A stretch of DNA of 57,403 nt from a virus. Location of the stretch: positions 1 through 57,403 of IMG/VR virus record IMGVR_UViG_3300046170_000265; one strand, 5' to 3'. The notes beneath the pieces are model-generated. The model searched no databases and was not told the origin of the DNA. It was given only the letters and a program-made list of their open reading frames with translations. How positions within the stretch are numbered: position 1 is the stretch's first letter; each line of letters begins with the position of its first letter. Position numbers and translations under genes: made by a program. Shown here in pieces: positions 16,713-35,244 of the stretch.

Positions 16713-17274
16713 ACTGTGTAATCCTTGGTTTTCTGGGGTGGACGCTGCTTTGAAAGGACGGACTACAAAAACAACAACGCCGGACCTTTATGTCTTTTTT
16801 TAAACTTGGTTGATCAATGGTGTGCCTGGGGGTCAAAATGACCGGGATGGAACCAAAAGCCTGACCGCTGCCGAGGTAATTCGACACGACACAAGCTAAG
16901 CGACTGTAATCGTTAGGTGTTGAGGTCAGGCGATCTTTAATCGCTTGCCCTTTTGGTCCCTGCTCTTCAGGACATTAGGCCATTAGAGAAAATTATTGGG
17001 ATGACCTATTCGATCTTCGATACAAATCGGAACCTAAGCCACTACAGTCCACCTAAGCCACTACAGTCCACCTGAGTTGACTGCTGTTGTCTTGTGTATC
17101 AGTGGTAGTTCGTAGGTGGTTTAAGATGGTACTCATCAGACAAACCTAGGTCACTATAGGTAACTATAGTCCTCTTAGGTGATACCACTTAATCGCTGTT
17201 CTTATTGCGTTTGGGAGACAAACAGCATATATCTTTAGTGTGCTTCGGCACCATCACCCTGAAGAAGGGCGATG
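16713..17274. promoter_or_regulatory. Regulatory gap between middle and late genes of A
   Basis: No convincing gene in about 560 bases. It contains a 19-base tandem repeat (17,033-17,070), a perfect palindrome ACTATAG-GTAA-CTATAGT (17,153-17,170), a 7-base inverted pair AGTGGTA/TACCACT (17,101-17,107 and 17,184-17,190), and two AAGCGA/TCGCTT elements (16,898-16,903 and 16,941-16,946) like those crowding the att region. It lies just upstream of the late virion operon and just after a terminator, so late promoters or a replication origin are likely here. None of the five polymerase-promoter cores occurs in it. Confidence 0.5.
17033..17070. repeat. Two tandem 19-base repeats, CCTAAGCCACTACAGTCCA
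   Basis: Two exact, directly adjacent copies of CCTAAGCCACTACAGTCCA, followed by CCTGAG. A degenerate third copy is CCTAGGTCACTATAGG at about 17,145-17,160. The related CCTARGYCACTAYAG core and the nearby palindrome suggest iterated binding sites, either promoter elements or origin iterons. Confidence 0.7.
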
Positions 17275-18998: not shown

Positions 18999-19188
18999 CG
19001 AGAAAAAACTCCTTTGTTAGCCCTTCATCAGCTGGGTTAAAGGTTGTTTCTTCGCTTCTGACTTCGCCGCACCAGTCGCACTCCGTCCAATCAATCTGTT
19101 TGACTAAGTGGCTATCCTCGATTGGTTCAAAGAATTGATCAGCGCACCGCACGGATTTGTCCATGCCGCAATCATTACATTGCATCAT
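18988..19188 (-). CDS. Small zinc-ribbon protein
   Basis: 66 residues with CNDCG near the N-terminus and CDWCG near the middle, a two-CxxC zinc-ribbon arrangement; a lone Cys lies between. The C-terminus is acidic. It lies between the reductase gene (its start is four bases past that stop) and thyX. No specific function is recognised; a nucleic-acid or protein-binding accessory is possible. Confidence 0.75.
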   Translation of the reverse strand: MMQCNDCGMDKSVRCADQFFEPIEDSHLVKQIDWTECDWCGEVRSEETTFNPADEGLTKEFFLDAS

Positions 19189-19191
19189 GAT

Positions 19192-21140: not shown

Positions 21141-21316
21141 TGCTGCACCTCCGCCAGATCCCTGACAATCGCGCCGAGCTGGTAATAAGCGTCTGCGCTG
21201 CGGGTGTAATTGGTTGAAGACATTCTCTCTTGGTCACCACGACGATTGTTCATGGCCTCATCGAGGTCGTCCATTGCACGTTGAATTTCCTTAATTGCTC
21301 TCGTTAAGGGGTCCAT
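21128..21316 (-). CDS. Small hypothetical protein
   Basis: 62 residues, predicted helical (AIKEIQRAMDDLDEAM, then YYQLGAIVRDLAEVQQW). It overlaps the exonuclease end by 13 bases and the DUF3310 start by 13. No known function. Its place in an overlapping gene chain makes it credible despite the short length. Confidence 0.6.
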   Translation of the reverse strand: MDPLTRAIKEIQRAMDDLDEAMNNRRGDQERMSSTNYTRSADAYYQLGAIVRDLAEVQQWRS

Positions 21317-22032: not shown

Positions 22033-22360
22033 CTTCAATCCCCTCCATGGCCGCTAGGCCGTCCTGGGTAATCATCCAGACATTGCCGTAAGTGCTTTCA
22101 CCGATTTTGGTTGAGATCAGGCCATCACTGGCACAGATCCCAATTTCAGTGGCTGCCATCCTGGCAAAGTCACTTTTGGTGGTAAATGGGCTTTGCCTGG
22201 CTTTTGCCAGGGTCGACCAGATAGCCATTAGGCCCTCTAAATCTTCATCAGTGGGTGTCTGCCCAAGTGGCTCCGACTGAGTATTCGGCGTCGATTGGGA
22301 TTGAGAAGTTGAAGTATCTCCCCGCTTCTTGCGCCATTCGTCTAGCGAGATTACCGACAT
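22010..22360 (-). CDS. Small protein between DNA polymerase and exonuclease, start uncertain
   Basis: The best ribosome site (AAAGGAGA) precedes the ATG at 22,360 (MSVISLDEWRKKRG), giving 116 residues but overlapping the polymerase gene by 113 bases. An internal ATG at 22,228, with AGAGGG upstream and just past the polymerase stop, would give 72 residues. The C-terminal part (WSTLAKARQSPFTTKSDFARMAATEIGICASDGLIST) resembles a winged-helix DNA-binding domain. The N-terminal part is low complexity (Ser, Thr, Gln). It ends 22 bases inside the exonuclease start. Function unknown. Confidence 0.6.
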   Translation of the reverse strand: MSVISLDEWRKKRGDTSTSQSQSTPNTQSEPLGQTPTDEDLEGLMAIWSTLAKARQSPFTTKSDFARMAATEIGICASDGLISTKIGESTYGNVWMITQDGLAAMEGIEDVLSPRH

Positions 22361-24011
22361 GATGTGGGTCTCCTTTCGTTTGAATTTGAACCTCGTCGTG
22401 AACCCATGCGATGATGGTTGCGTCGAGTTGTTGGTGTTTGATTTCTTCGTCAATGAGCTTGATCCAGGCTTTAGAGATCAAAGCTGCGGCTGATTGCAGT
22501 AAGACATTCAGGTGTGCATGACCTCGAACCGGCAGTTTCCTGCCGTCCAGGCCAATAAGATGGCCCCTGCTCTCGACAACAGCCTTGAGTTGCCGTGTCA
22601 GCTCTTTGAAGGCTGGGTTGCTTCTGTAAAAGGCGTCACGCAGCTGCCGGCCTTCTTTGGCCGAGCCGCCGACAACCTCACCAAGCTTGCTATCGCCACC
22701 GCCGAAAATGAGGCAATAAATGGCGGTCTTAGCCTGATTTCTGTCAGTTAGACCCATGTCGTGCATATTCTGCGTGTGAATATCGCCCTGCATGATCGTG
22801 TCAGCGTATTTGCCACCATCCTGTAGGAAATGTGCCAAACAGCGCAGCTCGATGCCTGAAAGATCAGATCCGACTAAGGTGAAACCATTTGGAACTGTAA
22901 ACAGCTGGCGCACCTCAAGCCCGTATTCGGCTCGAGTTGAGACAACTTGCTGGAGATTTGGTGCAAAGCTCGATGCTCGACCAGTTACGGTACCCATTGG
23001 ATTGATGGTGTGGCGTAACTTACCATCACCGTCGACCAACGCCATATAGGCGTATTTGCCTTCTGCCAGTGCGCCTAACCGCTTTTGCAGCATAAACGAC
23101 CGGCTCAGCTTTTGAGCTTCTGGGTAGCGCAGCTGCGCCAATATTGTTTCATCGATCTTGGCGTCGCCCTGAACTGTGAAATTCTTGGGCTTCCAGCCGT
23201 ACTTTTTGCGTAGGCAGTATTCAATGTGCTTGCGTGAATTTGGATTGAAGACGACTTCACGCTGTTTGATAAAAGGTACACCTTTTTCGTAACCTAACTT
23301 GCTGTTGTTAACCTTTGGTATGAACTCTTCTTCTAGATACCAATTAGGAAACAATGTCTGCAGCTCATCTTCGATCGTCGACTGTTCCAATGACAACTGC
23401 GCGTATAGCGAAGCTGCCTTGTCTGTGTCGAAAGTCCAACCGGCATTACCAATGCGGCTGCATAACTCAGCGACTGTATGCTCAAATCTAATTGCTTTGA
23501 ATGACCACTTGTGTGGGGCTAACGCCTCCCACAAAACGTGGTTAACCTTGACGTCCTGAAGACAATAGTCAGACATGGATTGCGTCCATTCTGACCAATC
23601 TGTTTGCTCACCAAAATCACCTTTGTGTATGCCAAGACGTACACCCCACGCCTTTAGGCTGTGACTTCCGTACATTTTCTTTGGGAAATCGTCAGCATGA
23701 CGTGGGGTTGCGTAGTCTTCATTCCTAAGATCGGAATGGATCAACCTGGACAGGACAAGTGTGTCTGTCAGCAGGATGTCGGCATGATTGAAGGTGGGAT
23801 AGACTTTTTCCAGCGCAGGGATATCAAAGGCCAAGATATTATGGCCAATCAGCTCCTTGGCTGACTGCAGCAACTCAACGCCAGCCTCGATCTCCCCTGG
23901 GTTAAATACCCAGGTTTGATCGGGGTTATCGGCGTTAACAGCTGCTATGCAGTGGATTTTGGTAAGGTGGTTCAGGAAGCCGTCAGTTTCGACATCGAAA
24001 ACCAAGCGCAT
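22248..24011 (-). CDS. Family A DNA polymerase with 3'-5' exonuclease, T7-type
   Basis: Replicative polymerase. The N-terminus carries proofreading exonuclease motif I (VFDVETDG: Asp6, Glu8) and further exo motifs (NILAFDIPAL, YCLQDVKVN). The polymerase domain shows motif A (GSDLSGIELRC), motif B (RNQAKTAIYCLIFGGG) and motif C (AWVHDEVQI). At 587 residues it is shorter than T7 gp5 (704) but complete at both ends. Its start overlaps the mazG stop by one base, in a block of primase, mazG, polymerase and exonuclease. A thioredoxin-binding insertion is not obvious. Confidence 0.95.
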   Translation of the reverse strand: MRLVFDVETDGFLNHLTKIHCIAAVNADNPDQTWVFNPGEIEAGVELLQSAKELIGHNILAFDIPALEKVYPTFNHADILLTDTLVLSRLIHSDLRNEDYATPRHADDFPKKMYGSHSLKAWGVRLGIHKGDFGEQTDWSEWTQSMSDYCLQDVKVNHVLWEALAPHKWSFKAIRFEHTVAELCSRIGNAGWTFDTDKAASLYAQLSLEQSTIEDELQTLFPNWYLEEEFIPKVNNSKLGYEKGVPFIKQREVVFNPNSRKHIEYCLRKKYGWKPKNFTVQGDAKIDETILAQLRYPEAQKLSRSFMLQKRLGALAEGKYAYMALVDGDGKLRHTINPMGTVTGRASSFAPNLQQVVSTRAEYGLEVRQLFTVPNGFTLVGSDLSGIELRCLAHFLQDGGKYADTIMQGDIHTQNMHDMGLTDRNQAKTAIYCLIFGGGDSKLGEVVGGSAKEGRQLRDAFYRSNPAFKELTRQLKAVVESRGHLIGLDGRKLPVRGHAHLNVLLQSAAALISKAWIKLIDEEIKHQQLDATIIAWVHDEVQIQTKGDPHHVGNLARRMAQEAGRYFNFSIPIDAEYSVGATWADTH

Positions 24012-24433
24012 TAGCGGTTGTCGCCATTTCCACGCAATTGGTCTCGTCTGTCTCGATCCTGCAGCTTTTCTAGGTTCAGCTCAGCAATTTCTTCGAGCTG
24101 GTAACCAATGTCGTTTGCTACAGCTGTGACATACCAAAGCACGTCACCAAGCTCTTTTGCGATTTCGTGGCGCATCCTGGAACGCATCTCGATCATCGGT
24201 TCTTCCAGTGCAGTGTCATCGTGTTCACCGTCACGGAAGTATTTCTTCAGTTTTTCTGCGACTTCGCCGGCTTCGCCAACTAGACCAAGCACTGGATAAA
24301 CCAATGCACCTGGGTAGATGGCTGTTTGCATTGCCGATACGGCATAATCCTCGAAAGTCATGGGAAACGTATCCCAGTCTTCGAAATTATCGTTATCAGC
24401 ATCGAAATCATCGAATAGGTCACGCATGGTCAT
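24011..24433 (-). CDS. mazG: MazG-like nucleotide pyrophosphohydrolase
   Basis: 140 residues with the MazG/all-alpha NTP pyrophosphatase motifs GEAGEVAEKLKKYF and EIAKELGDVLWYVTAVA, which provide the ExxE and ExxD metal ligands. These enzymes hydrolyse NTPs or (p)ppGpp-like signals and are common in marine phages. The N-terminus is acidic. An AAGGAG ribosome site precedes the ATG, and a probable phage-polymerase promoter lies 20 to 45 bases upstream, inside the end of the primase gene. It overlaps the primase gene end by four bases. Confidence 0.9.
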   Translation of the reverse strand: MTMRDLFDDFDADNDNFEDWDTFPMTFEDYAVSAMQTAIYPGALVYPVLGLVGEAGEVAEKLKKYFRDGEHDDTALEEPMIEMRSRMRHEIAKELGDVLWYVTAVANDIGYQLEEIAELNLEKLQDRDRRDQLRGNGDNR

Positions 24434-26139
24434 GGTAATTCTCCTTGTGGTTTGTACTCAGGTGAAACCAATTGATCGGGTTCATCATCTGAGCCGAGTA
24501 GATGTGTAAGTTCTTCTTCAAGCAGTCGACCGCTATCCCTGTTGAAGACTAGAGTTCCGGCGTTGCTTGAGGTTTGTCCGGTAAAGCGATTTTTCAGGAC
24601 CGCTAGGTGTCGAATGTCGCTGTCTGGTTCGTCACGATCGACGTTGAGTGCAATGACAGCATCACTTAGCTGACCAAGGCTTGCCGATCCTCTGAGATGG
24701 TTCAACCTGACCGGCTGACCACCACTTTCATGGCCTGAGTTCCCTTCGGGGCGACGGACGTGCGACACCAGGATTAAACCAATGCCCAGCTCCTGGACTA
24801 ATGTCCGCAGCTTAGTCATGGCGTAATCAATCAGTTGCCGCTCGTTACCAAAGCCCCCTGCTCCCATTTGGGTGCAAAGGATTGAGATGTGATCCAATAC
24901 GATCCAACGGACACCCAAGGCTTTCACCATGTAGGTAATCCGTTGACAGATCAGATCGACGTCTGAGCTACCAAAATGGTCATAGAGGTAGACAGGATGC
25001 CGGCCATCACCGAACAAGTCGTCGAAGGCTGCAACGATCTCTTCATCAGTTGCCAGGCTTCGATCGATCGTAATGTTCTTGCTCATGTGTGTGCCAACCA
25101 GGCCAAGCAAGGTCCGCTTGTTGCTTTCTTCAAGCATAATCAAGCCAACCTGCTCACCGGATTGGTGCAGGTGATAGCAAATCTCTTTCACGAAAGTTGA
25201 TTTCCCGATCCCAGAGCCAGCAGCAATTGTGACCAGCTCATACGGTCTTAACCCGTGCAGAATGTCATTTAGCACCGAGTAAGGGTATGTGATGGATGAG
25301 GCTGCATCATCCACAGCAATTGCGCTTCTGAGATCGGTAGCAGCCACGATCCCGTCAGGCCGATAGTCACGGGCCTGAAAGATCGCCTGAATTACTTCTG
25401 CTGATTTACCTTGGACCAGGCACTCATTGGCGTCCTTGCAGGGTAAATATGCAATTTTGCATCTACCGACAGGTAGTGTTTCTGCGACAGCCAGGGCCGC
25501 ATTTTGGCCGCTACTGTCCATATCGAACATCAGGATCACTTCCTCGAAGCCGAGAACGTAATCCCAATTGTCTTTAATTGCTTTGACAGCCGATGGTGCG
25601 CCATTAGGCAGCGACACCACTGGCCATCTGTTGTTTTGGATCTGTGAGACGCTCAGGCAGTCAATTTCACCTTCTGTGATGACCAGCTTTTTTCCGCTGC
25701 GCCATAGGTGTGACCCAAACAACGTGCTTTCACGTTGGTTGCCAATGATTGAGAACCTTTTGTCTTTGGTCCTGAGCTTCTGGGCAACAGGTTTGCCATG
25801 CTTGTCTCGATAGACAGCAATCTGCGTCTCTTGCCCGTTGTGTTTACCAACCAGGTATCCAAACTTTTTGCAGGTCGCCTCAGTTAATCCTCGAGCTGGT
25901 ATCGCTTTTGGGATGCCCGAGAGTAAGACTTCTTGTTTCGTTTGACCTTGGTTCGGTACTGGTTGCGGTTTGTCGCCAACTGGCGAGCCACCGGATTTCT
26001 CACTGCCACTATAGGTGGTACAGGAGAAACAGAACGTATGTCCGTCATCAAATACTCCATTTGCGTCTGATGAGCCGCAAGCATCACAGCTGGTATGAGT
26101 TACGAACTGTGATTGGCTCTCCTTTGGTATTGCTTGCAT
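24430..26139 (-). CDS. Bifunctional primase-helicase, T7 gp4-like
   Basis: Unwinds DNA and makes primers at the fork. The N-terminal zinc finger is CDACGSSD..CFSC, then a Toprim domain (LVITEGEIDCLSV, LMFDMDSSGQNAA). The C-terminal RecA-type helicase has Walker A AAGSGIGKST, Walker B IVLDHISIL and a downstream RGSASLGQLSDAVIAL with the arginine-finger region. The ATG at 26,139 gives 569 residues, like T7 gp4A (566). The ORF extends upstream without a better start. It follows the small HTH gene after 26 bases and overlaps mazG by four. Confidence 0.95.
   Translation of the reverse strand: MQAIPKESQSQFVTHTSCDACGSSDANGVFDDGHTFCFSCTTYSGSEKSGGSPVGDKPQPVPNQGQTKQEVLLSGIPKAIPARGLTEATCKKFGYLVGKHNGQETQIAVYRDKHGKPVAQKLRTKDKRFSIIGNQRESTLFGSHLWRSGKKLVITEGEIDCLSVSQIQNNRWPVVSLPNGAPSAVKAIKDNWDYVLGFEEVILMFDMDSSGQNAALAVAETLPVGRCKIAYLPCKDANECLVQGKSAEVIQAIFQARDYRPDGIVAATDLRSAIAVDDAASSITYPYSVLNDILHGLRPYELVTIAAGSGIGKSTFVKEICYHLHQSGEQVGLIMLEESNKRTLLGLVGTHMSKNITIDRSLATDEEIVAAFDDLFGDGRHPVYLYDHFGSSDVDLICQRITYMVKALGVRWIVLDHISILCTQMGAGGFGNERQLIDYAMTKLRTLVQELGIGLILVSHVRRPEGNSGHESGGQPVRLNHLRGSASLGQLSDAVIALNVDRDEPDSDIRHLAVLKNRFTGQTSSNAGTLVFNRDSGRLLEEELTHLLGSDDEPDQLVSPEYKPQGELP
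24453..24476 (-). promoter_or_regulatory. Putative phage RNA polymerase promoter 5, before mazG
   Basis: Transcribed-strand core AATTGGTTTCACCT (24,460-24,473), preceded by ATC and followed by GAGTAC. It lies within the last codons of the primase gene and 27 bases upstream of the mazG start. It is the most diverged of five copies upstream of the core. Confidence 0.6.
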
Positions 26140-26165
26140 TGCTGTCTCTCCTGTAATTGCTTGAA

Positions 26166-26378
26166 CTAGGCCAGGCTGTAACGTGTGTAACGCTGGCCTA
26201 GGTTGTCTTTCTTCCATTCACTGATGATCTCAAATCCAGCTTCACGCAGGTCAGCGATCCGTCGCGTAAGCGATCTGATCCGGTAAAGATCATTTGCTTC
26301 GACAAACGTGATACTGCCCACGTCAATCAAGTGGTTCAGGACTAGTTGGTATTGGGATTGCCCCATGTATTTCTTCAT
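26166..26378 (-). CDS. Small winged-helix DNA-binding protein
   Basis: 70 residues from the ATG at 26,378, which overlaps the endonuclease stop as ATGA and has AGAAGGAG upstream. The sequence YQLVLNHLIDVGSITFVEAND followed by RSLTRRIADLREAGFEI is the helix-turn-helix plus recognition-helix pattern of the phage winged-HTH family often found beside T7-like endonucleases. A regulator or replication accessory is possible. It is one of the few candidate DNA-binding regulators in A. Confidence 0.7.
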   Translation of the reverse strand: MKKYMGQSQYQLVLNHLIDVGSITFVEANDLYRIRSLTRRIADLREAGFEIISEWKKDNLGQRYTRYSLA

Positions 26379-26806
26379 GCGTCTTCTCCTTCTGTTAGCC
26401 ATTCGGTTGGGATTGATTTGTTCGCGTACTCAAACCCATGCTTGTCGCACCACTGGGCATATGTAGTTGGGCTGCCTTTGTAGAGACGGGCATTTTGGTT
26501 TGAGAACACGAAACGAATGTCGATTTCAGGGTGCTGATCACGGATAAGCAGATGCTTTTGTCGGTCGTCGACTAGCCAGCGGCCCTTGGTTTCGACATAA
26601 AAAAAGCCGCCTGGCTTAGGCAGCTTAAAATCTGGGCGATAGGTGGATGATCGCTCCGGCCAGAGATAACTGATCTTATCCTGTTCGTATTGAACTATAA
26701 GACCAGCGTCCTCGATTTGGCGGGAAACACTGTCTTCTAAGCCAGAGCGGTAGCCATTCTTGATGGCCCGTTTTCGTAGCTTAGAAATTGTATGCTTGAC
26801 CTCCAT
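26375..26806 (-). CDS. Endonuclease I (Holliday-junction resolvase), T7 gp3-like
   Basis: Resolves branched DNA and helps break down host DNA. The 143 residues from ATG 26,806 carry the PD-(D/E)xK core: SGLEDSVSRQIEDAG, TYRPDF and FYVETKGRW, giving Glu, Asp, Glu-x-Lys. Length is close to T7 gp3 (149). An upstream ATG at 26,854 would overlap the SSB gene further. It sits between SSB and the small HTH gene, the same local order as in T7-like genomes. Confidence 0.9.
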   Translation of the reverse strand: MEVKHTISKLRKRAIKNGYRSGLEDSVSRQIEDAGLIVQYEQDKISYLWPERSSTYRPDFKLPKPGGFFYVETKGRWLVDDRQKHLLIRDQHPEIDIRFVFSNQNARLYKGSPTTYAQWCDKHGFEYANKSIPTEWLTEGEDA

Positions 26807-27350
26807 CACCTTCTGCAGCTGGTTGATTGTCGTTAGCTGCTGATAGGTTGTCATTGGCGGCTACAAAGCCACCCTCTTCAGCTGCGAATGAAACACTTGA
26901 GGTTTCACCTTGAGACAGCTCAACGATCTGGACGCCAGCAAGTTGCAGTGAAACACCTTTGTTTCCACCTGCGACATAGGGGTAAATCGTGCCAGCGAGT
27001 TTCAATGTAGAGCCGCCGAAGATTGGCGGAACATTGTTTTCGCTGATCAGGTTGCCCTGGCTGTCCATGATCTTTGGTCTGAATTTCGATTTGGTAACGA
27101 TAATCAGCTGGCCTGTATCCTCATCCGTTTTGAACGGGAGGCGTACATTTTGCGCTTCTTTGGTGCCAAATTCGTTGTTTGCTGCTTCCTGGACCGCTTT
27201 GATCAGGTCCGCAGCATCAGCTTTGTCCAGCTTCAAGTTGACCTTGAACTGGCCGTTGCTGTCGAATTGAAAGTCTGCCTTGTTTAACCAAGGGTACATT
27301 GCGATGCCTTTAGCGGTGCTAAAGGTCAGTTTCTTCTTCGTGTTTGCCAT
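26781..27350 (-). CDS. Single-stranded DNA-binding protein, T7 gp2.5-like/DUF2815
   Basis: Coats single-stranded DNA at the fork and coordinates polymerase and helicase. The 189 residues begin MANTKKKLTFSTAKGIAMYPWL; the OB-fold region includes FDSNGQFKVNLKL and PPIFGGSTLKLAGTIYPYVAG. The tail is Asn/Gly-rich and acidic, ending in an aromatic residue (QAYNF), the feature through which gp2.5-type proteins contact partners. The ATG at 27,350 is preferred to an earlier one because the homologous core starts there. It overlaps the endonuclease start by 26 bases. Confidence 0.85.
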   Translation of the reverse strand: MANTKKKLTFSTAKGIAMYPWLNKADFQFDSNGQFKVNLKLDKADAADLIKAVQEAANNEFGTKEAQNVRLPFKTDEDTGQLIIVTKSKFRPKIMDSQGNLISENNVPPIFGGSTLKLAGTIYPYVAGGNKGVSLQLAGVQIVELSQGETSSVSFAAEEGGFVAANDNLSAANDNQPAAEGDGGQAYNF

Positions 27351-27513
27351 TGTGTGAATAATCTCCTTTTTCAGTGGCTTTAAATGTTGGCTCACCTAAA
27401 TATTCCAGCGATAAGCCGAGCTGGTCTGCCTGTGCGAGCAGGTCTAGTGGTATTGGGTCGCCGCGCTGGCGATATATCTGTGCCAGCCCAAGCAACTCCT
27501 CGATGGGATGCAT
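27319..27513 (-). CDS. Small hypothetical protein
   Basis: 64 residues from ATG 27,513 with an AAAAAGGAAAC ribosome site. It contains PIEELLGLAQIYRQRGDPIPLDLLAQADQLG, a helical pattern, and has a polar tail. The gene starts about 35 bases downstream of promoter copy 3 and overlaps the SSB gene start by 32 bases, so it is the leader gene of the replication transcript. Function unknown. Confidence 0.6.
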   Translation of the reverse strand: MHPIEELLGLAQIYRQRGDPIPLDLLAQADQLGLSLEYLGEPTFKATEKGDYSHNGKHEEETDL

Positions 27514-27543
27514 TAAGTTTCCTTTTTCCTGTTGATAGGGTTG

Positions 27544-27566
27544 TCTGTAGGTGAAACCAATTAATG
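27544..27566 (-). promoter_or_regulatory. Putative phage RNA polymerase promoter 3, before the replication block
   Basis: Transcribed-strand sequence ATTAATTGGTTTCACCT then ACAGAC (core at 27,549-27,562). It lies just past the terminator at 27,578-27,606 and upstream of the leader gene and SSB, so it could start the whole replication transcript. Confidence 0.75.
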
Positions 27567-27577
27567 GCTCCAAACGC

Positions 27578-27606
27578 ACAAAAGGCGGCCCGAGAGCCGC
27601 CCTTGT
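27578..27606 (-). terminator. GC-rich hairpin with T-tract, terminator or 5' stem-loop
   Basis: Stem GGCGGC/GCCGCC with a six-base loop, extended by ACAAG/TTTTGT, then TTTTG on the transcribed strand. It lies 33 bases past the RNA polymerase stop but also immediately downstream of promoter copy 4. It may end the polymerase transcript, or act as a 5' stem-loop on RNA started at copy 4. Confidence 0.65.
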
Positions 27607-27627
27607 ACATAGGTGAAACCAATTAAA
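27605..27627 (-). promoter_or_regulatory. Putative phage RNA polymerase promoter 4, after the RNAP gene
   Basis: Transcribed-strand TTTAATTGGTTTCACCT then ATGTAC (core at 27,611-27,624). It is only 62 bases upstream of copy 3, with the strong GC hairpin between the two. Confidence 0.75.
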
Positions 27628-27638
27628 TCGGTGTCACG

Positions 27639-30518
27639 TCATGTCATGAAGTAGTCGCTTTCGCGAACCTTCGTAATGTCCAGATCGCCTTTGGCCGGTA
27701 CTTCTGGCCATTTCACTATCCGGAGTTTCAAGGCATCCAGTTCAGCATTAAGACCCTCGAGCAACCCTTCATCCTCTTCATGTTCAATTAGTTCTTGAAG
27801 GTTGTGAATTTGCTCCTTGATCTCGAGGCTGTCTGGATCTGGGTGTCTTGCTTTGCACTGCTCGAGAAGGTCGCTGTATAGACAATATCCGTCATACATC
27901 TCGACCATTGCGTCTCTGGCAGCATCCCGCATCACCTCAGCATTACCACAGGTAGTGGCATAGCTGTCGTGAACGACCATAAGATCAGTAACCCCATGAT
28001 CAGCGCAGCGTAAGGCAGTTAACATCAACAATGTGCTATCCATCGAATGGATTATGTTGGGACTTACTGCACTGACGCTTTTATTAGGATCAATGCCGGG
28101 CATTGTTTTGGTGTAGCTCATCAAGCCCCGAGATTTGATAGCCTCGATATCATGGCTGTAAAGAAACACCCGACGCCTTGCCGACTTATTGTTCCGATAG
28201 TATTGATGCACCGGAAAGTTGAGTTTTGGCGTTTTGAAAGTGAGATGTAGATCGGCGTCAACCATGATCTTGGCGCAAGCTTGGAAAAATTCCATGCCAT
28301 CTTTGGCTGACTTGATCACACTTTCGATTGCGTCTTGACTGATACCAGCTAAGTAATGAGATGCCTGGTAACCGCCATCTTCAGGGAATGGATGCTTCTC
28401 ACGTTCACCAGCGCGAACCTCAAGATCCATTTCGTCCATCCAGTCTTTTTTGAACTGCTGGGCGAAGCCATACTTGCGGCTCGAATAAGCCCAAACCATG
28501 GCCGGTCTCTTGATGACACTCCGGTTTAGGTACTTTTTGCCTTTTGGATTTTCATCAGTCGGCTCGACCTCATAGGACAACAGTACTCTTGCAATGTCGA
28601 TTTCTTGATCACGCTTCAATCTTCTGTGTGAAGCAGTCTTTTTATAATCACGCTTTGCCTTGCGTTTCCTTTTCTCGAGAGCGTCCATTTCATCTAGATC
28701 GTCAGCTTTTTCAGCCATGATCCTTTGATATGCTTTGTGCGCTTCCCGATCATTGTCATTCGCAGGGTCAAGCTCTTGATTTGCAAGTTTCTCAGCCTTG
28801 TCAGCTTCGATCATTTCTTCTGCAACCACGAGACAAGCCTTGTACAGGTCGTTAGGCTTATCTTCTGAGCCTTTGACCAGGTTAACTAGCAATCCGTCAT
28901 CTTCGTTCAAGCTAGCAGCAGCGTAATGCTGGATGCCGGATTGAGTTGCATCGACGGCAACAGGTAAACCAGACCAATGGTCCTTGCCTTCTTGCTGGGC
29001 AACCATGTATTCAGCCAAGTCACGGCAAGCAGCTAAGAACTGGAATGGATCGTCAGCCTTGCTCCAGAAATCAAATGACGCCTTGTAATCGATGCCGACG
29101 TTGACCACTTCTTCAAGGTTTTCTTCCACCCATTTGATCCGAGTGTCGTAGCTCTCTTTATCCAAGCCATAGGTGTTTGAAACCTGCAGAAGGATCCATG
29201 CTGAATTTTCCTCTGTTACCTTCGTCTTGTTGGCAAATAGAAACATTGCCCTCAAGAAATCTGTATTGTGGTGGCCAAAATCGCTGACGTGATAGACACG
29301 CCCTCGCCGGTCCCAATTGTGTGGCATCCAGAACTGATCATATTGAGCAAGCTTCCTAGCTTCATTCAATGTACGGCGGATCTTTGACCGGTTGGCCCGA
29401 GCTTGCCTGTTGACGGCTTTGCATCGAGTTAGATTTCGCATATGAGCGATTTGATCATCTTTATCGAGGTCATCGTAGTTCACGCCTTCGTCGAGCTTTG
29501 GAACCTCAACAGTTTTGGTGTTTGGAAACTTTTTGACCAAACGGCCCTTGCCCGTCTTGCGGACCCAATCGACAGCATCGACCACAAAGTCATTAACGGT
29601 GTAAGGCACCTGTTGCAGGAGGTTTAAAGCCTCAACAGCCTTGTCTAAGCTGCCATCTCGCAATCCTGCATCAAGATCCTTACGCTGCTCTGGGCCAGCG
29701 TGTTTGACCATTGGCGTCATGATTGCCAGGCGAGGTGTTATGTATGGACCGATTTGATCCAAACCCCATGGTCTTGGCATTACATTCATTGGTGCAAGGT
29801 ATGGCGACATACGGTCAAGATCAGCAAACTTTTCTTCGATCTCAGCTTCTACCTCGGGACGCAGGATCATGAATTTTTCTGGGAAGTCTTTCGTCTCATC
29901 CGCTAGATCTTTGTGCGTCATGAACACGTCTTTACAAGCAGCTTCGACCACTGACAGTAAAAATGAGCCGACAGTCTGTTCTAAACCGCCATCATCATCT
30001 TCCCACTTCTCGAAGGTAAAGCCTCTTTTGGCTGCCTGACGCAGGACGTAATCTTGACGTTTTTCAACCTTGTCACTTTGCAACGTGGCGTTTTGTGCCA
30101 GCCGCTTTGCTAGGCGGTCACCAGCACGATTTGCTTGAAGTCTGTGTTCAAAATCCAGACACTTGATCGCCTGGCCGACCCTGTTTGCCAGCGTATTGTA
30201 AGTCCATTCTTTCTCATGGCCATCAAGACACTGCATGAAAGCGACATAAGCGACATCAATCTGTGGTAGTTCCGCAAGTGGCTCAAGCCATTTGGCGTTT
30301 TGACCGCGGTTAGCACGGGTTTGCTCAGACTGGCTTACAATCTCATCCATGATGGGCTGAATGTATTGTTCGATTAGTTTGACAGATACAACACTGGCAG
30401 ACATATCAAGGCTCTGGCGGCGGTCTCTAGAGCGAGCTTCGCCCCGATCAACTATGTTGACCTGCTCATGCTCCAAAGCATCTTTTCTGGTCCTGGGTGT
30501 ATTGTCGTTTGCTACCAT
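27639..30518 (-). CDS. Single-subunit DNA-directed RNA polymerase, T7-type
   Basis: Transcribes middle and late phage genes from its own promoters. 959 residues against 883 in T7, with extra length in the N-terminal half and a Lys-rich central insert. Catalytic motifs: motif A PVAVDATQSGIQHYAA (Asp523), motif B KRPAMVWAYSSRKYGF (Lys and Tyr), and motif C VVHDSYAT (His850, Asp851). T7 has DGSCSGIQH in motif A, so the surrounding residues differ while the Asp is kept. A TAGGAG ribosome site precedes the ATG. It lies just after two small genes beside the integrase. Its likely promoters are the repeated element described at five sites. Confidence 0.97.
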   Translation of the reverse strand: MVANDNTPRTRKDALEHEQVNIVDRGEARSRDRRQSLDMSASVVSVKLIEQYIQPIMDEIVSQSEQTRANRGQNAKWLEPLAELPQIDVAYVAFMQCLDGHEKEWTYNTLANRVGQAIKCLDFEHRLQANRAGDRLAKRLAQNATLQSDKVEKRQDYVLRQAAKRGFTFEKWEDDDGGLEQTVGSFLLSVVEAACKDVFMTHKDLADETKDFPEKFMILRPEVEAEIEEKFADLDRMSPYLAPMNVMPRPWGLDQIGPYITPRLAIMTPMVKHAGPEQRKDLDAGLRDGSLDKAVEALNLLQQVPYTVNDFVVDAVDWVRKTGKGRLVKKFPNTKTVEVPKLDEGVNYDDLDKDDQIAHMRNLTRCKAVNRQARANRSKIRRTLNEARKLAQYDQFWMPHNWDRRGRVYHVSDFGHHNTDFLRAMFLFANKTKVTEENSAWILLQVSNTYGLDKESYDTRIKWVEENLEEVVNVGIDYKASFDFWSKADDPFQFLAACRDLAEYMVAQQEGKDHWSGLPVAVDATQSGIQHYAAASLNEDDGLLVNLVKGSEDKPNDLYKACLVVAEEMIEADKAEKLANQELDPANDNDREAHKAYQRIMAEKADDLDEMDALEKRKRKAKRDYKKTASHRRLKRDQEIDIARVLLSYEVEPTDENPKGKKYLNRSVIKRPAMVWAYSSRKYGFAQQFKKDWMDEMDLEVRAGEREKHPFPEDGGYQASHYLAGISQDAIESVIKSAKDGMEFFQACAKIMVDADLHLTFKTPKLNFPVHQYYRNNKSARRRVFLYSHDIEAIKSRGLMSYTKTMPGIDPNKSVSAVSPNIIHSMDSTLLMLTALRCADHGVTDLMVVHDSYATTCGNAEVMRDAARDAMVEMYDGYCLYSDLLEQCKARHPDPDSLEIKEQIHNLQELIEHEEDEGLLEGLNAELDALKLRIVKWPEVPAKGDLDITKVRESDYFMT

Positions 30519-30551
30519 TAAACTCTCCTATTGTGACTAAAGTACTAAAGA

Positions 30552-30576
30552 TATAGGGGGGTGAATACCCCCCATA
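30552..30576. other. GC hairpin in the leader before the RNAP gene
   Basis: TATAGGGGGGTGAATACCCC followed by CCATA forms a stem with six G-C pairs and a short loop, between the 60-residue gene and the RNA polymerase start. No clear T-tract follows, so attenuation or RNA processing is as likely as termination. Confidence 0.5.
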
Positions 30577-30585
30577 GACACAAGC

Positions 30586-30768
30586 CTAAGCAGCTTGGGT
30601 CTTGTTGTTGTCGTTAGCTGCATTAGCCAACAGGTCGCTAAGGTTTACCCGAGGTGTCTGGTGCTTCCATGGTGTTACTCCGGTTAGCACCTGATGCATC
30701 ATTTCTTCAGCATCTTGGTTGTAGTTTTGGACCTGGGTACCTTTGTTGTTGTCATTTAACATCATCAT
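30586..30768 (-). CDS. Small hypothetical protein before the RNAP gene
   Basis: 60 residues, Asn/Gln-rich, starting MMMLNDNNKGTQVQ with a TAGGAGA ribosome site. A conserved-looking stretch is MMHQVLTGVTPWKHQTPRVN. It is preceded by promoter copy 2. Early-gene position, small size and polar composition resemble T7 host-takeover proteins, but no family is recognised and that comparison is inference. Confidence 0.6.
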   Translation of the reverse strand: MMMLNDNNKGTQVQNYNQDAEEMMHQVLTGVTPWKHQTPRVNLSDLLANAANDNNKTQAA

Positions 30769-30805
30769 TCTCCTACCTTGGTTGAACTAAAGACCGGAAC
30801 TGGCC

Positions 30806-30830
30806 GTATAAAGGTGAAACCAATTAATTC
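30806..30830 (-). promoter_or_regulatory. Putative phage RNA polymerase promoter 2
   Basis: Transcribed-strand GAATTAATTGGTTTCACCT then TTATACGG (core at 30,812-30,825). It lies 38 bases upstream of the 60-residue gene and reads on into the polymerase gene, which would allow positive feedback on the polymerase. Confidence 0.75.
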
Positions 30831-30863
30831 ACTAAGGAAATCAATGGCTTCACCTTCTGGTCT

Positions 30864-31202
30864 TTAGGCTGCTTTTGACCAGCCTGTCAGGACCGTGTGG
30901 GGCAAGGTCGTCGTATGAGATGCTCGCCAATCGAAATTCAGATGATCCATCCGAGCGAATTGACGTCTGGCATGGATGTTTAACAATGGCTCGACGTCTG
31001 GGAACCGCTGAACCTGAAGAGCCATCCAGGCGCATAGCAACGCAACGCCGTCAAACTCCATGCGTTCGAATACGGCATCGCCTTCGCCAAAGCGGATGAA
31101 GACGGCATATTCGATTTCGTCCTGTGTGAACGAAAATTCATAGGGCCCATCGACACCAAGGTGATGAGTTACAAAATCGATAAATGTTTTTTCGGTTTTC
31201 AT
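30864..31202 (-). CDS. Hypothetical early protein, 112 residues
   Basis: Starts MKTEKTFIDFVTHHLGVDGP with an AAAAGGAG ribosome site. Middle contains a beta-rich FSFTQDEIEYAVFIRFGEGD, then the helical VALLCAWMALQVQRFPDVEP. No family is recognised. It is the first gene after the integrase and lies 38 bases downstream of promoter copy 1. Confidence 0.6.
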   Translation of the reverse strand: MKTEKTFIDFVTHHLGVDGPYEFSFTQDEIEYAVFIRFGEGDAVFERMEFDGVALLCAWMALQVQRFPDVEPLLNIHARRQFARMDHLNFDWRASHTTTLPHTVLTGWSKAA

Positions 31203-31240
31203 AGTAAATGCTCCTTTTCACCAGAACCCGGGATGGGTTC

Positions 31241-31264
31241 GTATATAGGTGAAACCAATTAATC
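31241..31264 (-). promoter_or_regulatory. Putative phage RNA polymerase promoter 1
   Basis: Transcribed-strand ATTAATTGGTTTCACCT then ATATACG (core at 31,247-31,260). Immediately downstream lies the small hairpin GAACCC-ATCCC-GGGTTC, like the 5' stem-loops of T7 mRNAs. Confidence 0.75.
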
Positions 31265-31420
31265 TGCTGATGTGGATGTCCTGTGCCGGACAGCAGCGCA
31301 CTAGTGTGTGCGACTTCTTTGGATCGACGCGGTCGTGCCTTGTCGATGGAGCGTTAAATGTTCAATGACGGAGCATCGAGCATTTGCCCAAACTAGAACA
31401 AAAGCAGAACGCCGTCTACC

Positions 31421-31452
31421 AAAAAAAGGGCCACCGAGGTCATCGGCAGCCC
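31421..31452 (-). terminator. Intrinsic terminator after the integrase gene
   Basis: Transcribed-strand GGGCTGCCGA/TCGGTGGCCC stem (two wobble pairs) with loop TGACC and a run of seven T. It is 22 bases past the integrase stop. It separates host-driven integrase transcription from the phage-promoter block. Confidence 0.85.
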
Positions 31453-31474
31453 ATCAGATTGGTTTGCTTGGATA

Positions 31475-32446
31475 TTATATTGACAGTGCGGACACAGCCC
31501 CTGCCCGTGCAGATGCGTCGCCATGATAGTACTTCTTTGTCGTAGCGACGCTGGAATGACCCAGCTGCTCAGCCACTGTCAATGAGTTGACCTTGGCCCG
31601 TGCCATATTGGTTGCAGCATAATGCCTTGTAGCGTGAAACTTGAACCAGGTGTCGTTGCCATGGCCCATAAAGTCCTTCACATCGTTCCAGCGGTCATAA
31701 AAGCGTCTGTGGGTGAACTCACGGCCAATGTTAGCCCGAAGCCACTGAGCGGCTTCCCATGCGCCATCAGCGACCAGGCTTACCCAGCGACCTTTGCTGG
31801 TCTTTGTAACTTGTGCCGGAAGCCAAACTTCCTTGGCATCATCGTTCCATTCAATAATGTCTAACGGTAACGCTACGATTTCGCCCTGCCTCATACCTGT
31901 AAGACAACCCAGCTTAATCATGTATGACACCCACTGGTCGCCATTGCGATCATGCAGCTCGATCATCTGACGTACCTGGTCTTTGGTGAAGGCACGGGTA
32001 TTTGGCTCAGCTTGCTTTAACAAGCCTACCCTTGGACGATCAGTCATGATCTGCAGTTCCTCGACTGCGAACCGGAAGCAAGCTGATACAGCAGACAGAT
32101 GCCGGTTGATTGTCGAATCAGTCATATCTGTATGTTGCTGGAGATAATTGCGATATGCGATACAGTCAGCAGCCGTGATCTGGTTCATCGGCTTCATGCC
32201 GTAGTCTTTGAAATCTGCGAATCGGGACACCTGCATCATACAGTCACGACGGTGCTTGAAGGCTCCCCACATATCACGCTGGTGCTTGTGAGCGAACATA
32301 AGGATATTAGAGCGGCTGCAGTCGAATTTGGTGTCGTCAATAGCAGCTGGAGCTGGCTCAGGGCGACTGTCGATTACATTGTTGGTACTGATGATTTCAT
32401 CTGAAGTGGGGTTAGAAAAGTCATCGAAAAGGTTAAATTGGTCCAT
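31475..32446 (-). CDS. int: Tyrosine recombinase integrase, prophage A
   Basis: Inserts and excises the prophage at the tRNA-Asn site. The N-terminal core-binding domain is about residues 50-135 (MNQITAADCIAYRNYLQQH, STINRHLSAV). The catalytic domain has Arg186 (LTGMRQGE), His271 and Arg274 (HATRHYAA), His297 (EQLGHSS) and the nucleophile Tyr306 or Tyr307 (TTKKYYHG). Length of 323 is typical. An AAGGAGACC ribosome site precedes the ATG. The gene points away from the att core, which lies 79 bases upstream of its start, with repeated AAGCGA sites between and beyond. Confidence 0.95.
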   Translation of the reverse strand: MDQFNLFDDFSNPTSDEIISTNNVIDSRPEPAPAAIDDTKFDCSRSNILMFAHKHQRDMWGAFKHRRDCMMQVSRFADFKDYGMKPMNQITAADCIAYRNYLQQHTDMTDSTINRHLSAVSACFRFAVEELQIMTDRPRVGLLKQAEPNTRAFTKDQVRQMIELHDRNGDQWVSYMIKLGCLTGMRQGEIVALPLDIIEWNDDAKEVWLPAQVTKTSKGRWVSLVADGAWEAAQWLRANIGREFTHRRFYDRWNDVKDFMGHGNDTWFKFHATRHYAATNMARAKVNSLTVAEQLGHSSVATTKKYYHGDASARAGAVSALSI

Positions 32447-32490
32447 CTTACGGTCTCCTTAGAGTTACATAAGATGAAACGGGGGGTGTG

Positions 32491-32949
32491 TCGCTTGACT
32501 ACCGCCGATTTCTAGCAGTCATTCAAGCGACTGTTAATCGCTTGGCCGGCGGTTCGAATCCGTCCCGGGGAGCCAACTCTCTAAGTTTATCAACAACTTA
32601 GATGACATATCCCAAAACTTTAAATTCTTGCCTTTGGTAAAGCGATTGTTGCCCTCAACCTTCGCTTGTCCCCTTATATATAAGCTTTTCCTAGCTTAAT
32701 TACAACTGCTGGGAAACCGGTTCTGCTGGGATACTGTTGGTACATCAGGGGTTCTGCAAAGCCGTGTATGTCGCTTGACTGAGGAAAGCGATTGCCAGTC
32801 GCTTGGCCTAAAAGGGTAAAGCGACATACAAAAAGGGCTATTTTTCACGTTTTCTTGTCTCGTAAAGATACTTTGGTTAGACTTTTGAATAACGCGATAA
32901 AGACACCAAAAGAGCTGCCATGAAAATCCCACAACAAATGACTAAGCGA
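32491..32949. repeat. Array of AAGCGA/TCGCTT sites around att
   Basis: TCGCTT at 32,491, 32,538, 32,662, 32,771, 32,799 and AAGCGA at 32,525, 32,640, 32,786, 32,819 and 32,944: ten hexamers on one or other strand in about 460 bases, versus roughly 0.2 expected. Many extend to TCGCTTGRC. Two form palindromes like the anticodon arm (32,525-32,547 and 32,786-32,808, 19 of 23 identical). A 12-base inverted pair TGTATGTCGCTT/AAGCGACATACA spans 32,765-32,830. Integrase arm sites or repressor operators are the best explanations. There is no gene in 32,576-32,919. Confidence 0.75.
32525..32575 (+). other. Attachment core: 3' half of tRNA-Asn(GTT), A-B junction
   Basis: Reads as a tRNA 3' half: anticodon stem AGCGA/TCGCT with loop CTGTTAA (anticodon GTT, Asn), T-arm GGCGG-TTCGAAT-CCGTC, acceptor strand CCGGGGA, discriminator G and encoded CCA. 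The sequence 5' of position 32,525 cannot form the D-arm or a matching acceptor strand (TCCCCGG is absent), so this is not a complete tRNA. It is what remains at the distal end of a phage that integrates into the 3' end of a tRNA gene. A's integrase is on the left and B's att-proximal gene on the right. Confidence 0.88.
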
Positions 32950-35244
32950 CAAAAAGACAGGCTTACGGTTCTGAATTCAAAAGGCATCACCGCTCTTCAA
33001 ATAGCCAAAATACTTGAGCTTCCTTTAGTGTTGGTTGAGGAAGAAATTGAAACGCGAAAGCAAAATCTTTTGAAGAAAAGATGGACGAAAGACCAGTCAA
33101 ATGAAGCGTTAGACTTATATGTCAAAAACGTGTCTCTAACTGAAATTGCAAACCTAACTGGTAAAACTAGAGTGCAGATAGCAAGGCACTTCAGAGATAT
33201 TAGGGATGACTGGGTTAACGAAGGCACAAAATACAACTATTTGAATGTTGATTTGAGAGTGAAATTAGCAGCTAAAATTGAACGAAGGGAAAACACTGAC
33301 AAGCGGCCAATAAGAATGGCTAGAGCGAGGCTCCCTGACAAAATACGGAGCAAGCAGCTAGCTGGTCTCGCAGAAACACTCGCTTATAAAGAAAATGTGC
33401 TGCTTGATGAATGGTGGCAGTTTGGCGTCCTAAACAGCGTTGAGGATGACCGCCTTAGCCTGACTGCAATCTCGAAGGACAACAACAGGGTTACATTAAT
33501 CAAGAAGTACACGCCGAACTGGAAAGAAGTTCTGCTGAAACTGAAAGGCTTGATGGGTGAATTTGTTTCTGTCCGTGTAATTCAAAATTACTTACCAGTT
33601 GTTAATGCCGGAGCAGGAACTAAGAAAGATGTTGTCTACGAACCACGGATGGTTGACGTAACGGCATCTGAAGGCATCATGAGCCTCGCAAAGTCCTTCC
33701 CAAGTGACACCCGAAACCAGTCTTTCATTGGAAGGTATAAGTGGTTGCGCTTTGGCGAGTTTGAAGCCAAGTCAACCAGCGAACACATTCTCATTGGAAA
33801 TGTTGATGGTCGGGTCATGGCTTTCCGAAAGGGCAGCATCAACAGCGTTCTAGAGCAACGTCTCACGGACACTTTAGATATGGCTGAAGGTCAATCTATC
33901 TTGGTTTGTGTAGACCAAAAAAATCCAAAGCCTGACGGTGTTTTAAGCGTGTTTGTTGACGCACACATCGAAGAGGAAGGCATTGAGACTTACAACGAAG
34001 ACTACAATACAATTGTAGAAACGATTGCTCGCACAAAGGATGAAGCTGCTGAGGCTAACTTGACAGTGCAAAAAAAGCACAAAGAGATACAACAGCAGCT
34101 ACTAGAGAAAGAAGTGCAACATACAAAACAGATTACAGAACTGAAGTTTGAGTTCGAGCGTGAAACACAAGAAGTACAAGCACAGATAAAGGAACAAACA
34201 GGTGCTTTTAGACGCTTAGAAGCAGAATTACAAAGAGAGCTGCTAGATTACAATGAACAAGAGAGGTTTCTGCGCGACACAAAAGAAGGGCTTCAACAGT
34301 ACAAGGTAGGTGTTCTAGCAGCGGCTGCAGACCAAACAGGGTCGGGCAGCACTTTTCAAATGAAAGGGCTGAAGGTAATACAAGGCGAAGAGGCTCAGTG
34401 GCATGATTTCAATGAGGCAATCAAGGCATTTGAGGGGAGTGGAGGTGAAGAAGCACAAGAGCTTTACAAAGAAATCCAAGACCTAAAAAGGGAAGTGTTA
34501 AAAGCACATAAGAATGCAGCTGCTACTTCAAATACCTCTGAAGAAGAGGAAGGGTTTGAGCCACCAGAACCAGATTACATCCTCAACCCTGAAGCAGACC
34601 TCTCGCTTTTTGATGAAAAGCAACCAGACCCGGACAGCCCAATGATGGCAATGATGCGAGAGATGATGGCAGAAGTGCAGAGTTTAAAAAGCTCGCAACA
34701 AAGTTTTATTGAAGCATCAGCAATGACAGAGTTTGAAGTTCAAGAGTTACGTGACTATTCCCGTGCAGAAGACGAAGAGTTGAGTACAGACAACGCAAAA
34801 ACAGAAGCTGAACACAAAGACATACTGGAGAATGTGAGAGAGTTTGTCGGAAAGCCACCAAGGCAACTAAAAGTGTACGTTGGTCACGCTCGGAATACAC
34901 TATGTCTTCGCGCCGGTATCGACCTTACAAGGGAAAAACCTGACAACAGGATTGATGTTCAGTTTACCAAACACATTGGTAAATCAACGTTTCTGGTTCA
35001 CTTCCCCAAATACAATCATGACGCAATGCTATCCATTGTTCGAGACTCGAAAGACAAAAACGATTTTGCAGTAAAATCATGCCTTCATCTTGATGGTGAA
35101 AGGTGGAAAGAAATTGAACAGGAAGTCACAGGACAAGGTGGTAAGCGTCTGACAGGCAAAAAGCCCAAACAGTGGTTAGCATATCGCAAACAGATAATTG
35201 CAAAGCTAGAAGCACCTAAAGCGAAAAAAAAGGCCAGAGGATAA
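32920..35244 (+). CDS. 774-residue HTH/coiled-coil protein of unknown function, att-proximal
   Basis: Not recognised. Residues 7-45 (RQKDRLTVLNSKGITALQIA, then KILELPL) and 52-95 (RWTKDQSNEALDLYVKNVSL, then TEIANLTGKTRVQIARHF) each look like a helix-turn-helix, resembling GcrA/sigma-type tandem DNA-binding regions. A mixed domain follows to about 360. A long charged coiled coil runs from about 370 to 470, then an acidic low-complexity linker (EEEEGFEPPEPD), a Met-rich helix (MMAMMREMMAEV), and a C-terminal beta/alpha domain with a basic tail (KAKKKARG). It is the only real plus-strand gene, is more AT-rich than its neighbours, has a weak ribosome site, and sits between att and the lysis genes. 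A lysogenic-conversion, immunity or defence role is inferred only from that. Confidence 0.75.
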   Translation: MKIPQQMTKRQKDRLTVLNSKGITALQIAKILELPLVLVEEEIETRKQNLLKKRWTKDQSNEALDLYVKNVSLTEIANLTGKTRVQIARHFRDIRDDWVNEGTKYNYLNVDLRVKLAAKIERRENTDKRPIRMARARLPDKIRSKQLAGLAETLAYKENVLLDEWWQFGVLNSVEDDRLSLTAISKDNNRVTLIKKYTPNWKEVLLKLKGLMGEFVSVRVIQNYLPVVNAGAGTKKDVVYEPRMVDVTASEGIMSLAKSFPSDTRNQSFIGRYKWLRFGEFEAKSTSEHILIGNVDGRVMAFRKGSINSVLEQRLTDTLDMAEGQSILVCVDQKNPKPDGVLSVFVDAHIEEEGIETYNEDYNTIVETIARTKDEAAEANLTVQKKHKEIQQQLLEKEVQHTKQITELKFEFERETQEVQAQIKEQTGAFRRLEAELQRELLDYNEQERFLRDTKEGLQQYKVGVLAAAADQTGSGSTFQMKGLKVIQGEEAQWHDFNEAIKAFEGSGGEEAQELYKEIQDLKREVLKAHKNAAATSNTSEEEEGFEPPEPDYILNPEADLSLFDEKQPDPDSPMMAMMREMMAEVQSLKSSQQSFIEASAMTEFEVQELRDYSRAEDEELSTDNAKTEAEHKDILENVREFVGKPPRQLKVYVGHARNTLCLRAGIDLTREKPDNRIDVQFTKHIGKSTFLVHFPKYNHDAMLSIVRDSKDKNDFAVKSCLHLDGERWKEIEQEVTGQGGKRLTGKKPKQWLAYRKQIIAKLEAPKAKKKARG

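What the first reader, a model, noticed from the sequence alone, without database searches (positions are those of the whole stretch)
24453..31264. Five copies of a probable new T7-type RNA polymerase promoter
The core AATTGGTTTCACCT occurs five times, all on the transcribed strand and all just upstream of a gene start in the middle region (31,247; 30,812; 27,611; 27,549; 24,460). Four share TTAATTGGTTTCACCT, and the sequence after it often contains TAC. The CACCTATA part resembles T7 CACTATAG. A T7-type polymerase is encoded beside them. The specificity appears distinct from T7, T3, K1-5 and SP6 as I recall them.
Basis: partly seen in the sequence, partly recalled or inferred. Interest (0 to 1): 0.75.

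Follow-up and report, generated by a model that had tools for sequence, protein, structure and literature searches.

The report
New T7-like phage polymerase promoters
A short DNA sequence repeated five times in this uncultured, integrase-bearing virus is almost certainly the start signal read by the virus's own T7-like RNA polymerase, and related viruses carry different signals at the same places, so the family is a natural set of matched polymerase-promoter pairs.

Summary
AATTGGTTTCACCT occurs exactly five times at the stated coordinates, all on the minus strand; no 14-mer in 200 shuffles occurred more than twice. In T7 register the element is TAATT-GGTTTCAC-CTAT|R: TAAT (-17..-14) and CAC (-7..-5) sit exactly where T7 has them, while -13..-9 differ mostly. 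The adjacent 959-aa gene is a T7-type RNA polymerase (RNAP) with intact active-site residues, only ~25% identical to any isolated phage's. The strongest new evidence is comparative. A relative (75-80% identical RNAP) keeps the element at two syntenic sites. More distant relatives (RNAP about 30-40% identical) carry eight different repeated elements at the same places: upstream of the RNAP gene and just after it, before a terminator hairpin. A purine stands at inferred +1 in 52 of 52 sites. A sixth, weaker site (17177) precedes the structural genes. The 24460 site lies inside a gene end and is weaker in the relative. This is a new member of a known kind (T7-family RNAP-promoter pairs; closest precedent: LUZ100), of moderate interest. 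Transcription start sites remain untested.

The parts
31239..31261 (-). promoter copy 1 (-17..+6: TAATTGGTTTCACCTAT|ATACGA), upstream of the first leader ORF
   Evidence: exact 14-mer; T7-register table
30804..30826 (-). promoter copy 2 (TAATTGGTTTCACCTTT|ATACGG), upstream of the second leader ORF and RNAP
27603..27625 (-). promoter copy 3 (TAATTGGTTTCACCTAT|GTACAA), directly after the RNAP gene, before the terminator-like hairpin
   Evidence: exact and syntenic in L005
27541..27563 (-). promoter copy 4 (TAATTGGTTTCACCTAC|AGACAA), after the hairpin, before the small ORF/SSB/endonuclease/primase operon
   Evidence: syntenic in L005 and L013
24452..24474 (-). promoter copy 5, least secure (CAATTGGTTTCACCTGA|GTACAA), overlapping the end of the primase-helicase gene
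   Evidence: in L005/L013 two of the 14 core bases differ; L055 has a promoter copy (11703) downstream of its RNAP/endonuclease genes, just before thymidylate synthase
17169..17191 (-). candidate late promoter (TAAGTGGTATCACCTAA|GAGGAC), upstream of the structural genes
   Evidence: 2 mismatches; matching late sites in L017 10428 and L058 18001 share the start GAGGRAC
22877..22890 (-). 1-mismatch match inside the DNA polymerase gene; probably chance
   Evidence: no match in relative L013
27639..30518 (-). T7-type single-subunit RNA polymerase, 959 aa; D523, K670, Y678 and D851 invariant
   Evidence: PHROG 414 E=1.6e-148, Pfam PF00940 E=7e-82; model matches T7 RNAP, TM 0.69-0.71
28092..28196 (-). 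RNAP residues 775-809: modelled beta hairpin at the place of the T7 specificity loop
   Evidence: tip at low confidence; alignments
27581..27604 (-). terminator-like hairpin at the 5' end of the copy-3 transcript
   Evidence: the same promoter-hairpin pairing in most relatives
31428..31452 (-). intrinsic terminator after the integrase gene
30552..30576 (-). strong G/C hairpin between copy 2 and the RNAP gene (possible attenuator)
31475..32446 (-). tyrosine integrase
30864..31202 (-). leader ORF of 112 aa downstream of copy 1, no family match
30586..30768 (-). leader ORF of ~60 aa downstream of copy 2; similar small proteins occur at the same place in relatives
26781..27395 (-). gp2.5-like single-stranded DNA-binding protein (first middle operon)
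24430..26217 (-). T7-like primase-helicase
22248..24011 (-). family A DNA polymerase

Best explanation
The repeated element is the promoter of this phage's own T7-type RNA polymerase. Inferred mechanism: the polymerase reads the AT-rich part TAATT at -17..-13 and, with its specificity loop, GGTTTCAC at -12..-5; it melts CTAT at -4..-1 and starts at a purine (A or G) at +1. Copies 1 and 2 lie upstream of the polymerase gene, so the enzyme can amplify its own synthesis once a little has been made by host transcription. Copies 3 and 4 drive the DNA-replication operon, possibly helped by copy 5, and a weaker copy at 17177 drives the structural genes. The hairpin after copy 3 probably stops host transcription coming through the polymerase gene and becomes the 5' hairpin of the phage transcript. 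Shown here: the sequence, its positions, its conservation in a close relative, its positional replacement in distant relatives, and the polymerase's identity. Inferred: binding, start sites, feedback and the hairpin's role.
For: Five exact one-strand copies against a maximum of 2 for any 14-mer in shuffles. T7-type RNAP beside them: PHROG 414, Pfam RNA_pol, Foldseek best hits all T7 RNAP (E to 1e-38), D523/K670/Y678/D851 invariant among 20 relatives. T7 register: TAAT and CAC at identical positions, purine at +1 in 6 of 6 window sites and 52 of 52 clade sites. L005 (RNAP ~75-80% identical) keeps copies 3 and 4 exactly, with the hairpin between them. L016/L017, L037, L038, L052, L054, L055, L058 and L061/L104 have other repeated elements upstream of and directly after the RNAP gene. 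In 8 of 10 phages the exact match between the 140 nt after RNAP and the upstream region (14-26 nt) was reached by 0-3 of 300 random windows, opposite-strand matches being 8-11 nt. Isolated phages CRP-125 and RHEph21 also carry such repeats there. LUZ100, an integrase-bearing T7-like phage, has mapped phage promoters before RNAP and in tandem before SSB (PMC10134795).
Against: No transcript, footprint or in vitro data. +1 is inferred from the alignment, not mapped. Copy 5 lies in coding sequence and differs at 2 of 14 core bases in L005/L013. Only one plausible copy (2 mismatches) serves the ~17 kb of structural genes. L016 and L104 pass the repeat test only with a mismatch allowed. Promoter distance tracks specificity-loop distance (r=0.54) no better than whole-RNAP distance (r=0.57); the partial correlation is 0.17, p=0.08.
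Confidence: 0.92

Rival explanations
1. The sites are operators for a phage repressor or lysogeny regulator (for example MarR-like) controlling the early operons.
For: The phage encodes an integrase, and LUZ100's MarR-like regulator is proposed to act at the phage promoter before RNAP (PMC10134795).
Against: The element is not palindromic, all copies point the same way, and they sit at fixed positions relative to gene starts. The purine register at +1 and the T7 match are unexplained. No regulator gene was recognised beside the integrase among the ORFs searched.
Confidence: 0.04
2. Host sigma-70-type promoters or other host transcription signals.
For: They lie in front of genes on the coding strand.
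Against: None of the 10 sigma-70-like matches in 16600-32900 falls on the sites, and the region has fewer such matches than shuffles. The element changes between relatives together with the RNAP, which a host signal would not predict.
Confidence: 0.02
3. Replication-origin repeats, packaging sites or RNA-level processing/leader signals.
For: Copies cluster near the replication genes, and hairpins follow copies 1 and 3.
Against: Copies are dispersed over 7-14 kb in front of separate operons. Hairpins differ between sites and copies 4 and 5 lack one. No Rfam match. The conserved part ends at the predicted start.
Confidence: 0.02

Closest known systems
Bacteriophage T7 RNAP promoters (consensus TAATACGACTCACTATAG)
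   Same: TAAT at -17..-14, G at -11, T at -8, CAC at -7..-5, purine at +1; copies in front of the replication and structural operons, one right after the RNAP gene.
   Different: GGTTT instead of CGACT at -12..-8 and CTAT instead of TATA at -4..-1; start A or G followed mostly by TAC rather than GGGAGA; copies also upstream of the RNAP gene; RNAP only ~23% identical to T7's.
LUZ100, integrase-bearing T7-like Pseudomonas phage (PMC10134795)
   Same: Integrase followed by a terminator, a phage promoter before RNAP, tandem phage promoters before SSB, eight mapped sites with their own motif.
   Different: Its motif was not compared base by base here; it has a MarR-like regulator, which was not recognised in this window.
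Syn5 RNAP promoter (ATTGGGCACCCGTAA; PMC3950665)
   Same: ATTGG...CACC resembles AATTGGTTTCACC.
   Different: Spacing differs: six bases between CAC and the start in Syn5, four here, and three T rather than one G between GG and CAC here. Probably convergent.
Autographiviridae roseophages such as CRP-125, and Rhizobium phage RHEph21
   Same: Int-RNAP-SSB-endonuclease gene order; repeated elements in the same places (TTAGGTTGCACCATAGCATC; GATTACCCCTCACTTAAGCAA).
   Different: RNAP ~25% identical; different promoter sequences; the word promoter does not occur in the roseophage paper.

Membership tests
T7-family single-subunit RNA polymerase | Sequence-family match over the catalytic domain | tested here: met
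   Pfam PF00940 276 bits (cut-off 22), PHROG 414 1.6e-148
T7-family single-subunit RNA polymerase | Catalytic residues equivalent to T7 D537, K631, Y639, D812 | tested here: met
   D523, K670, Y678, D851 align and are invariant in 20 sequences
T7-family single-subunit RNA polymerase | T7 RNAP fold with a specificity-loop hairpin | tested here: met
   AlphaFold2 mean pLDDT 85.3, hairpin 775-809 with a low-confidence tip; top PDB hits T7 RNAP, TM 0.69-0.71, 21% identity
T7-type phage promoter | Multiple near-identical copies on the transcribed strand at gene starts | tested here: met
T7-type phage promoter | Recognition region -17..-5 with AT-rich part and specificity part, melting region -4..-1, purine +1 | tested here: met
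   sequence register only; regions as defined in PMC13029058
T7-type phage promoter | Sequence changes together with the cognate RNAP | tested here: met
   Identical promoters in near relatives, different ones in distant relatives; a loop-specific effect beyond overall RNAP divergence was not shown
T7-type phage promoter | Initiation by the cognate RNAP at +1 | not testable with these tools
   needs in vitro transcription or 5'-end mapping
Autographiviridae (T7-like genome) | Phage RNAP plus T7-like replication genes | tested here: met
Autographiviridae (T7-like genome) | T7-type capsid and portal | tested here: inconclusive
   The structural genes match SU10-type capsid and portal families; classification was not tested

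The most novel reading that the evidence does not exclude
An uncultured clade of integrase-bearing T7-like phages has kept promoter positions and the start core fixed while the recognition part (-17..-8) diversified with the RNAP into at least nine different repeated elements. If each pair is orthogonal, the clade is a ready-made set from which the RNAP-promoter recognition code could be read. Promoters upstream of the RNAP gene in clade members with upstream sequence would make RNAP self-amplification a general lysis switch of temperate T7-like phages.
Probability: 0.45. Interest if true: 0.55.

Novelty: new member of a known kind. Interest (0 to 1): 0.42.

Why it matters
Every well-separated T7-like RNAP with its own promoter is a potential orthogonal transcription tool, and few have been characterised. 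Here not one but about nine distinct repeated promoter candidates could be paired with full or partial RNAP sequences from a clade with no isolate in the phage collection searched. The set makes the recognition code between specificity loop and promoter testable across natural variants. Because these phages carry integrases and have promoters in front of the RNAP gene, it also makes the self-amplifying-RNAP idea proposed for LUZ100 testable in a second lineage.

Tried and rejected
RNAP-alignment scans of viral and genome contigs with only two sequences found no more than L005. A wider genome scan found only RNAPs of about 23-33% identity. The 16-mer TTAATTGGTTTCACCT elsewhere in IMG/VR gave only three single-copy contigs besides L005, taken as chance, and the two-copy pattern found only L005. 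The 1-mismatch match at 22877 was rejected as a promoter (coding, not conserved). The B half of the window has no A-type promoter; 57135 has 2 mismatches and lies in a gene. Host sigma-70 promoters and Rfam RNAs were rejected. A claim that the specificity loop alone explains promoter change was dropped: partial Mantel p=0.08. A general role for 5' hairpins was dropped: strong at copies 1 and 3, weak or absent at 2, 4 and 5. The string AATTGGTTTCACCT in papers appears only in three unrelated PRRSV papers.
Full report
What is there. The window is an IMG/VR virus record of 57,403 bases. Its minus strand carries, from about 32.4 kb leftwards, an integrase, two small ORFs, a T7-type RNA polymerase (RNAP), a gp2.5-like SSB, endonuclease I, primase-helicase, family A DNA polymerase, ribonucleotide reductase, thymidylate synthase and structural genes. 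The core AATTGGTTTCACCT occurs exactly five times, all on that strand, at the coordinates given. It is the most frequent 14-mer in the window; in 200 shuffles no 14-mer occurred more than twice. Four copies are intergenic, 37-99 nt before a gene start. The fifth (24460) overlaps the end of the primase gene, 26 nt before the next start.

The polymerase. The 959-aa protein matches PHROG 414 (E=1.6e-148) and Pfam RNA_pol (276 bits). Isolated phages have at best about 25% identity over the full length; T7 has about 23%. Residues equivalent to T7 D537, K631, Y639 and D812 are present (D523, K670, Y678, D851) and invariant in 20 relatives. An AlphaFold2 model (pLDDT 85.3) has T7 RNAP structures as its best PDB matches (TM 0.69-0.71) and a long beta hairpin at 775-809 where T7 has its specificity loop, although the tip is of low confidence.

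T7 register. Placing the element's CAC at T7 positions -7..-5 puts TAAT at -17..-14, exactly where T7 has TAAT, and leaves a purine at +1 in all six window sites (A, A, G, A, G, and G at 17177). The T7 consensus is quoted in PMC10134795; the division into AT-rich part, specificity part and melting region is from PMC13029058. The element differs from T7 at -13, -12, -10, -9 and in the melting tetramer (CTAT for TATA).

Conservation and replacement. L005 (RNAP ~75-80% identical) has the element exactly at the two places after its RNAP gene, with the GGGCGGC...GCCGCC hairpin between them. Its version of the 24460 site differs at two core bases, and the peptide there, QLVSPEY, is conserved. L013 shows the same for the part it covers. 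More distant clade members lack the window's element but carry another one, repeated at the same places. L016/L017: AGTTATGTATGGCCTATG. L037: AAACCCTATTCCACCTATG. L038: AGTTTCGTGCCACTATAG. L052: CGACGCGTTCCACCTATG. L054: TTTGTTCCTCTTATG. L055: AGTTGTGTTCCACCTATG. L058: AGTTGCGGGTATCGTATG. L061 and L104 share CCGACASTTATG. As a control, the longest exact match between the 140 nt after RNAP and the 3.5 kb before it was 14-26 nt in eight of ten phages (the window included); 0-3 of 300 random windows reached it, and opposite-strand matches were 8-11 nt. L016 and L104 pass only when a mismatch is allowed. Across 52 sites, inferred +1 is G in 46 and A in 6, and -5 is C in 50. These sites were found through shared motifs, so they are not independent trials. 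Promoter divergence follows RNAP divergence (Mantel r=0.57) and specificity-loop divergence (r=0.54); a loop effect beyond overall divergence was not shown (partial r=0.17, p=0.08).

How it probably works. The integrase gene ends in a strong terminator (31428-31452). Copies 1 and 2 then precede two small ORFs and the RNAP gene, so RNAP can amplify its own expression. Copy 3 follows the RNAP gene and is itself followed by a hairpin with a T-run, an arrangement repeated in most relatives. The simplest reading is a terminator for host transcription that phage RNAP passes through, possibly also protecting the 5' end of its transcript; this is inference. Copy 4 drives the SSB operon. LUZ100 has a closely similar mapped layout: integrase, terminator, phage promoter before RNAP, and tandem phage promoters before SSB (PMC10134795). 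A candidate late promoter at 17177 (two mismatches) precedes the structural genes. The corresponding sites in L017 (10428) and L058 (18001), near the end of the nucleotide-metabolism genes, share its predicted start GAGGRAC.

Rivals. Operators are unlikely: the element is not palindromic, has one orientation, and the register would be unexplained. Host sigma-70 promoters do not coincide with the sites. RNA families are not found. Replication or packaging repeats do not explain dispersal in front of separate operons.

Novelty. The sequence has not been described as a promoter in the papers searched, and no isolate in the phage collection has an RNAP close to this one. The kind, a T7-type RNAP with its own promoter, is well known, and integrase-bearing T7-like phages with phage promoters are known from LUZ100. 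I therefore class it as a new member of a known kind. Its added value is the clade-wide set of different promoters at fixed positions.

Limits. There are no transcript data. Some relatives are short contigs, so single-site candidates (L036, L053, L057, L060, L062) rest on position and core alone. The RNAP starts used for some relatives were stop-to-stop frames.

Noticed in passing
window 148-16712 and 35249-57403: Two related but distinct structural-gene sets (portal, terminase, capsid; roughly 50-79% aa identity for most core genes), both SU10-type capsid/portal, lie head to tail: two related phages in tandem or a tandem lysogen; the second phage's early region is beyond the right end.
   Followed up: partly
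window 32520-32580: A stretch that reads like the 3' half of tRNA-Asn(GTT) (my reading; ARAGORN called none) upstream of the integrase, with similar AAGCGAYTG..TCGCTTG repeats at 32525 and 32786 and another at 16928: probable attachment site or integrase arm sites.
   Followed up: partly
window 30586-30768: A small protein (about 55-60 aa, pattern YN..AE...LSDL...NDN) follows the upstream promoters and precedes RNAP in the window and many relatives (L061 2602, L037 2184, L052 1631, L055 5674, L058 5270); no family match.
   Followed up: partly
window 27710-27824 (RNAP residues 899-936): A 37-residue, probably helical insertion near the RNAP C terminus, absent in the otherwise ~80% identical L005 enzyme.
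   Followed up: no
window 32920-35244, + strand: A 774-aa ORF on the opposite strand between the two phages, with no Pfam, PHROG or NCBIfam match and no homologue among the related loci.
   Followed up: no
L104 2510, L017 10183: Single promoter-like copies on the opposite strand near the RNAP leader and near the end of the replication genes: possible antisense or divergent phage promoters.
   Followed up: no
L009 (CRP-125) and L011 (RHEph21), after the RNAP genes: Isolated phages carry their own repeated promoter-like elements (TTAGGTTGCACCATAGCATC; GATTACCCCTCACTTAAGCAA) in the same places; the roseophage paper does not mention promoters.
   Followed up: partly
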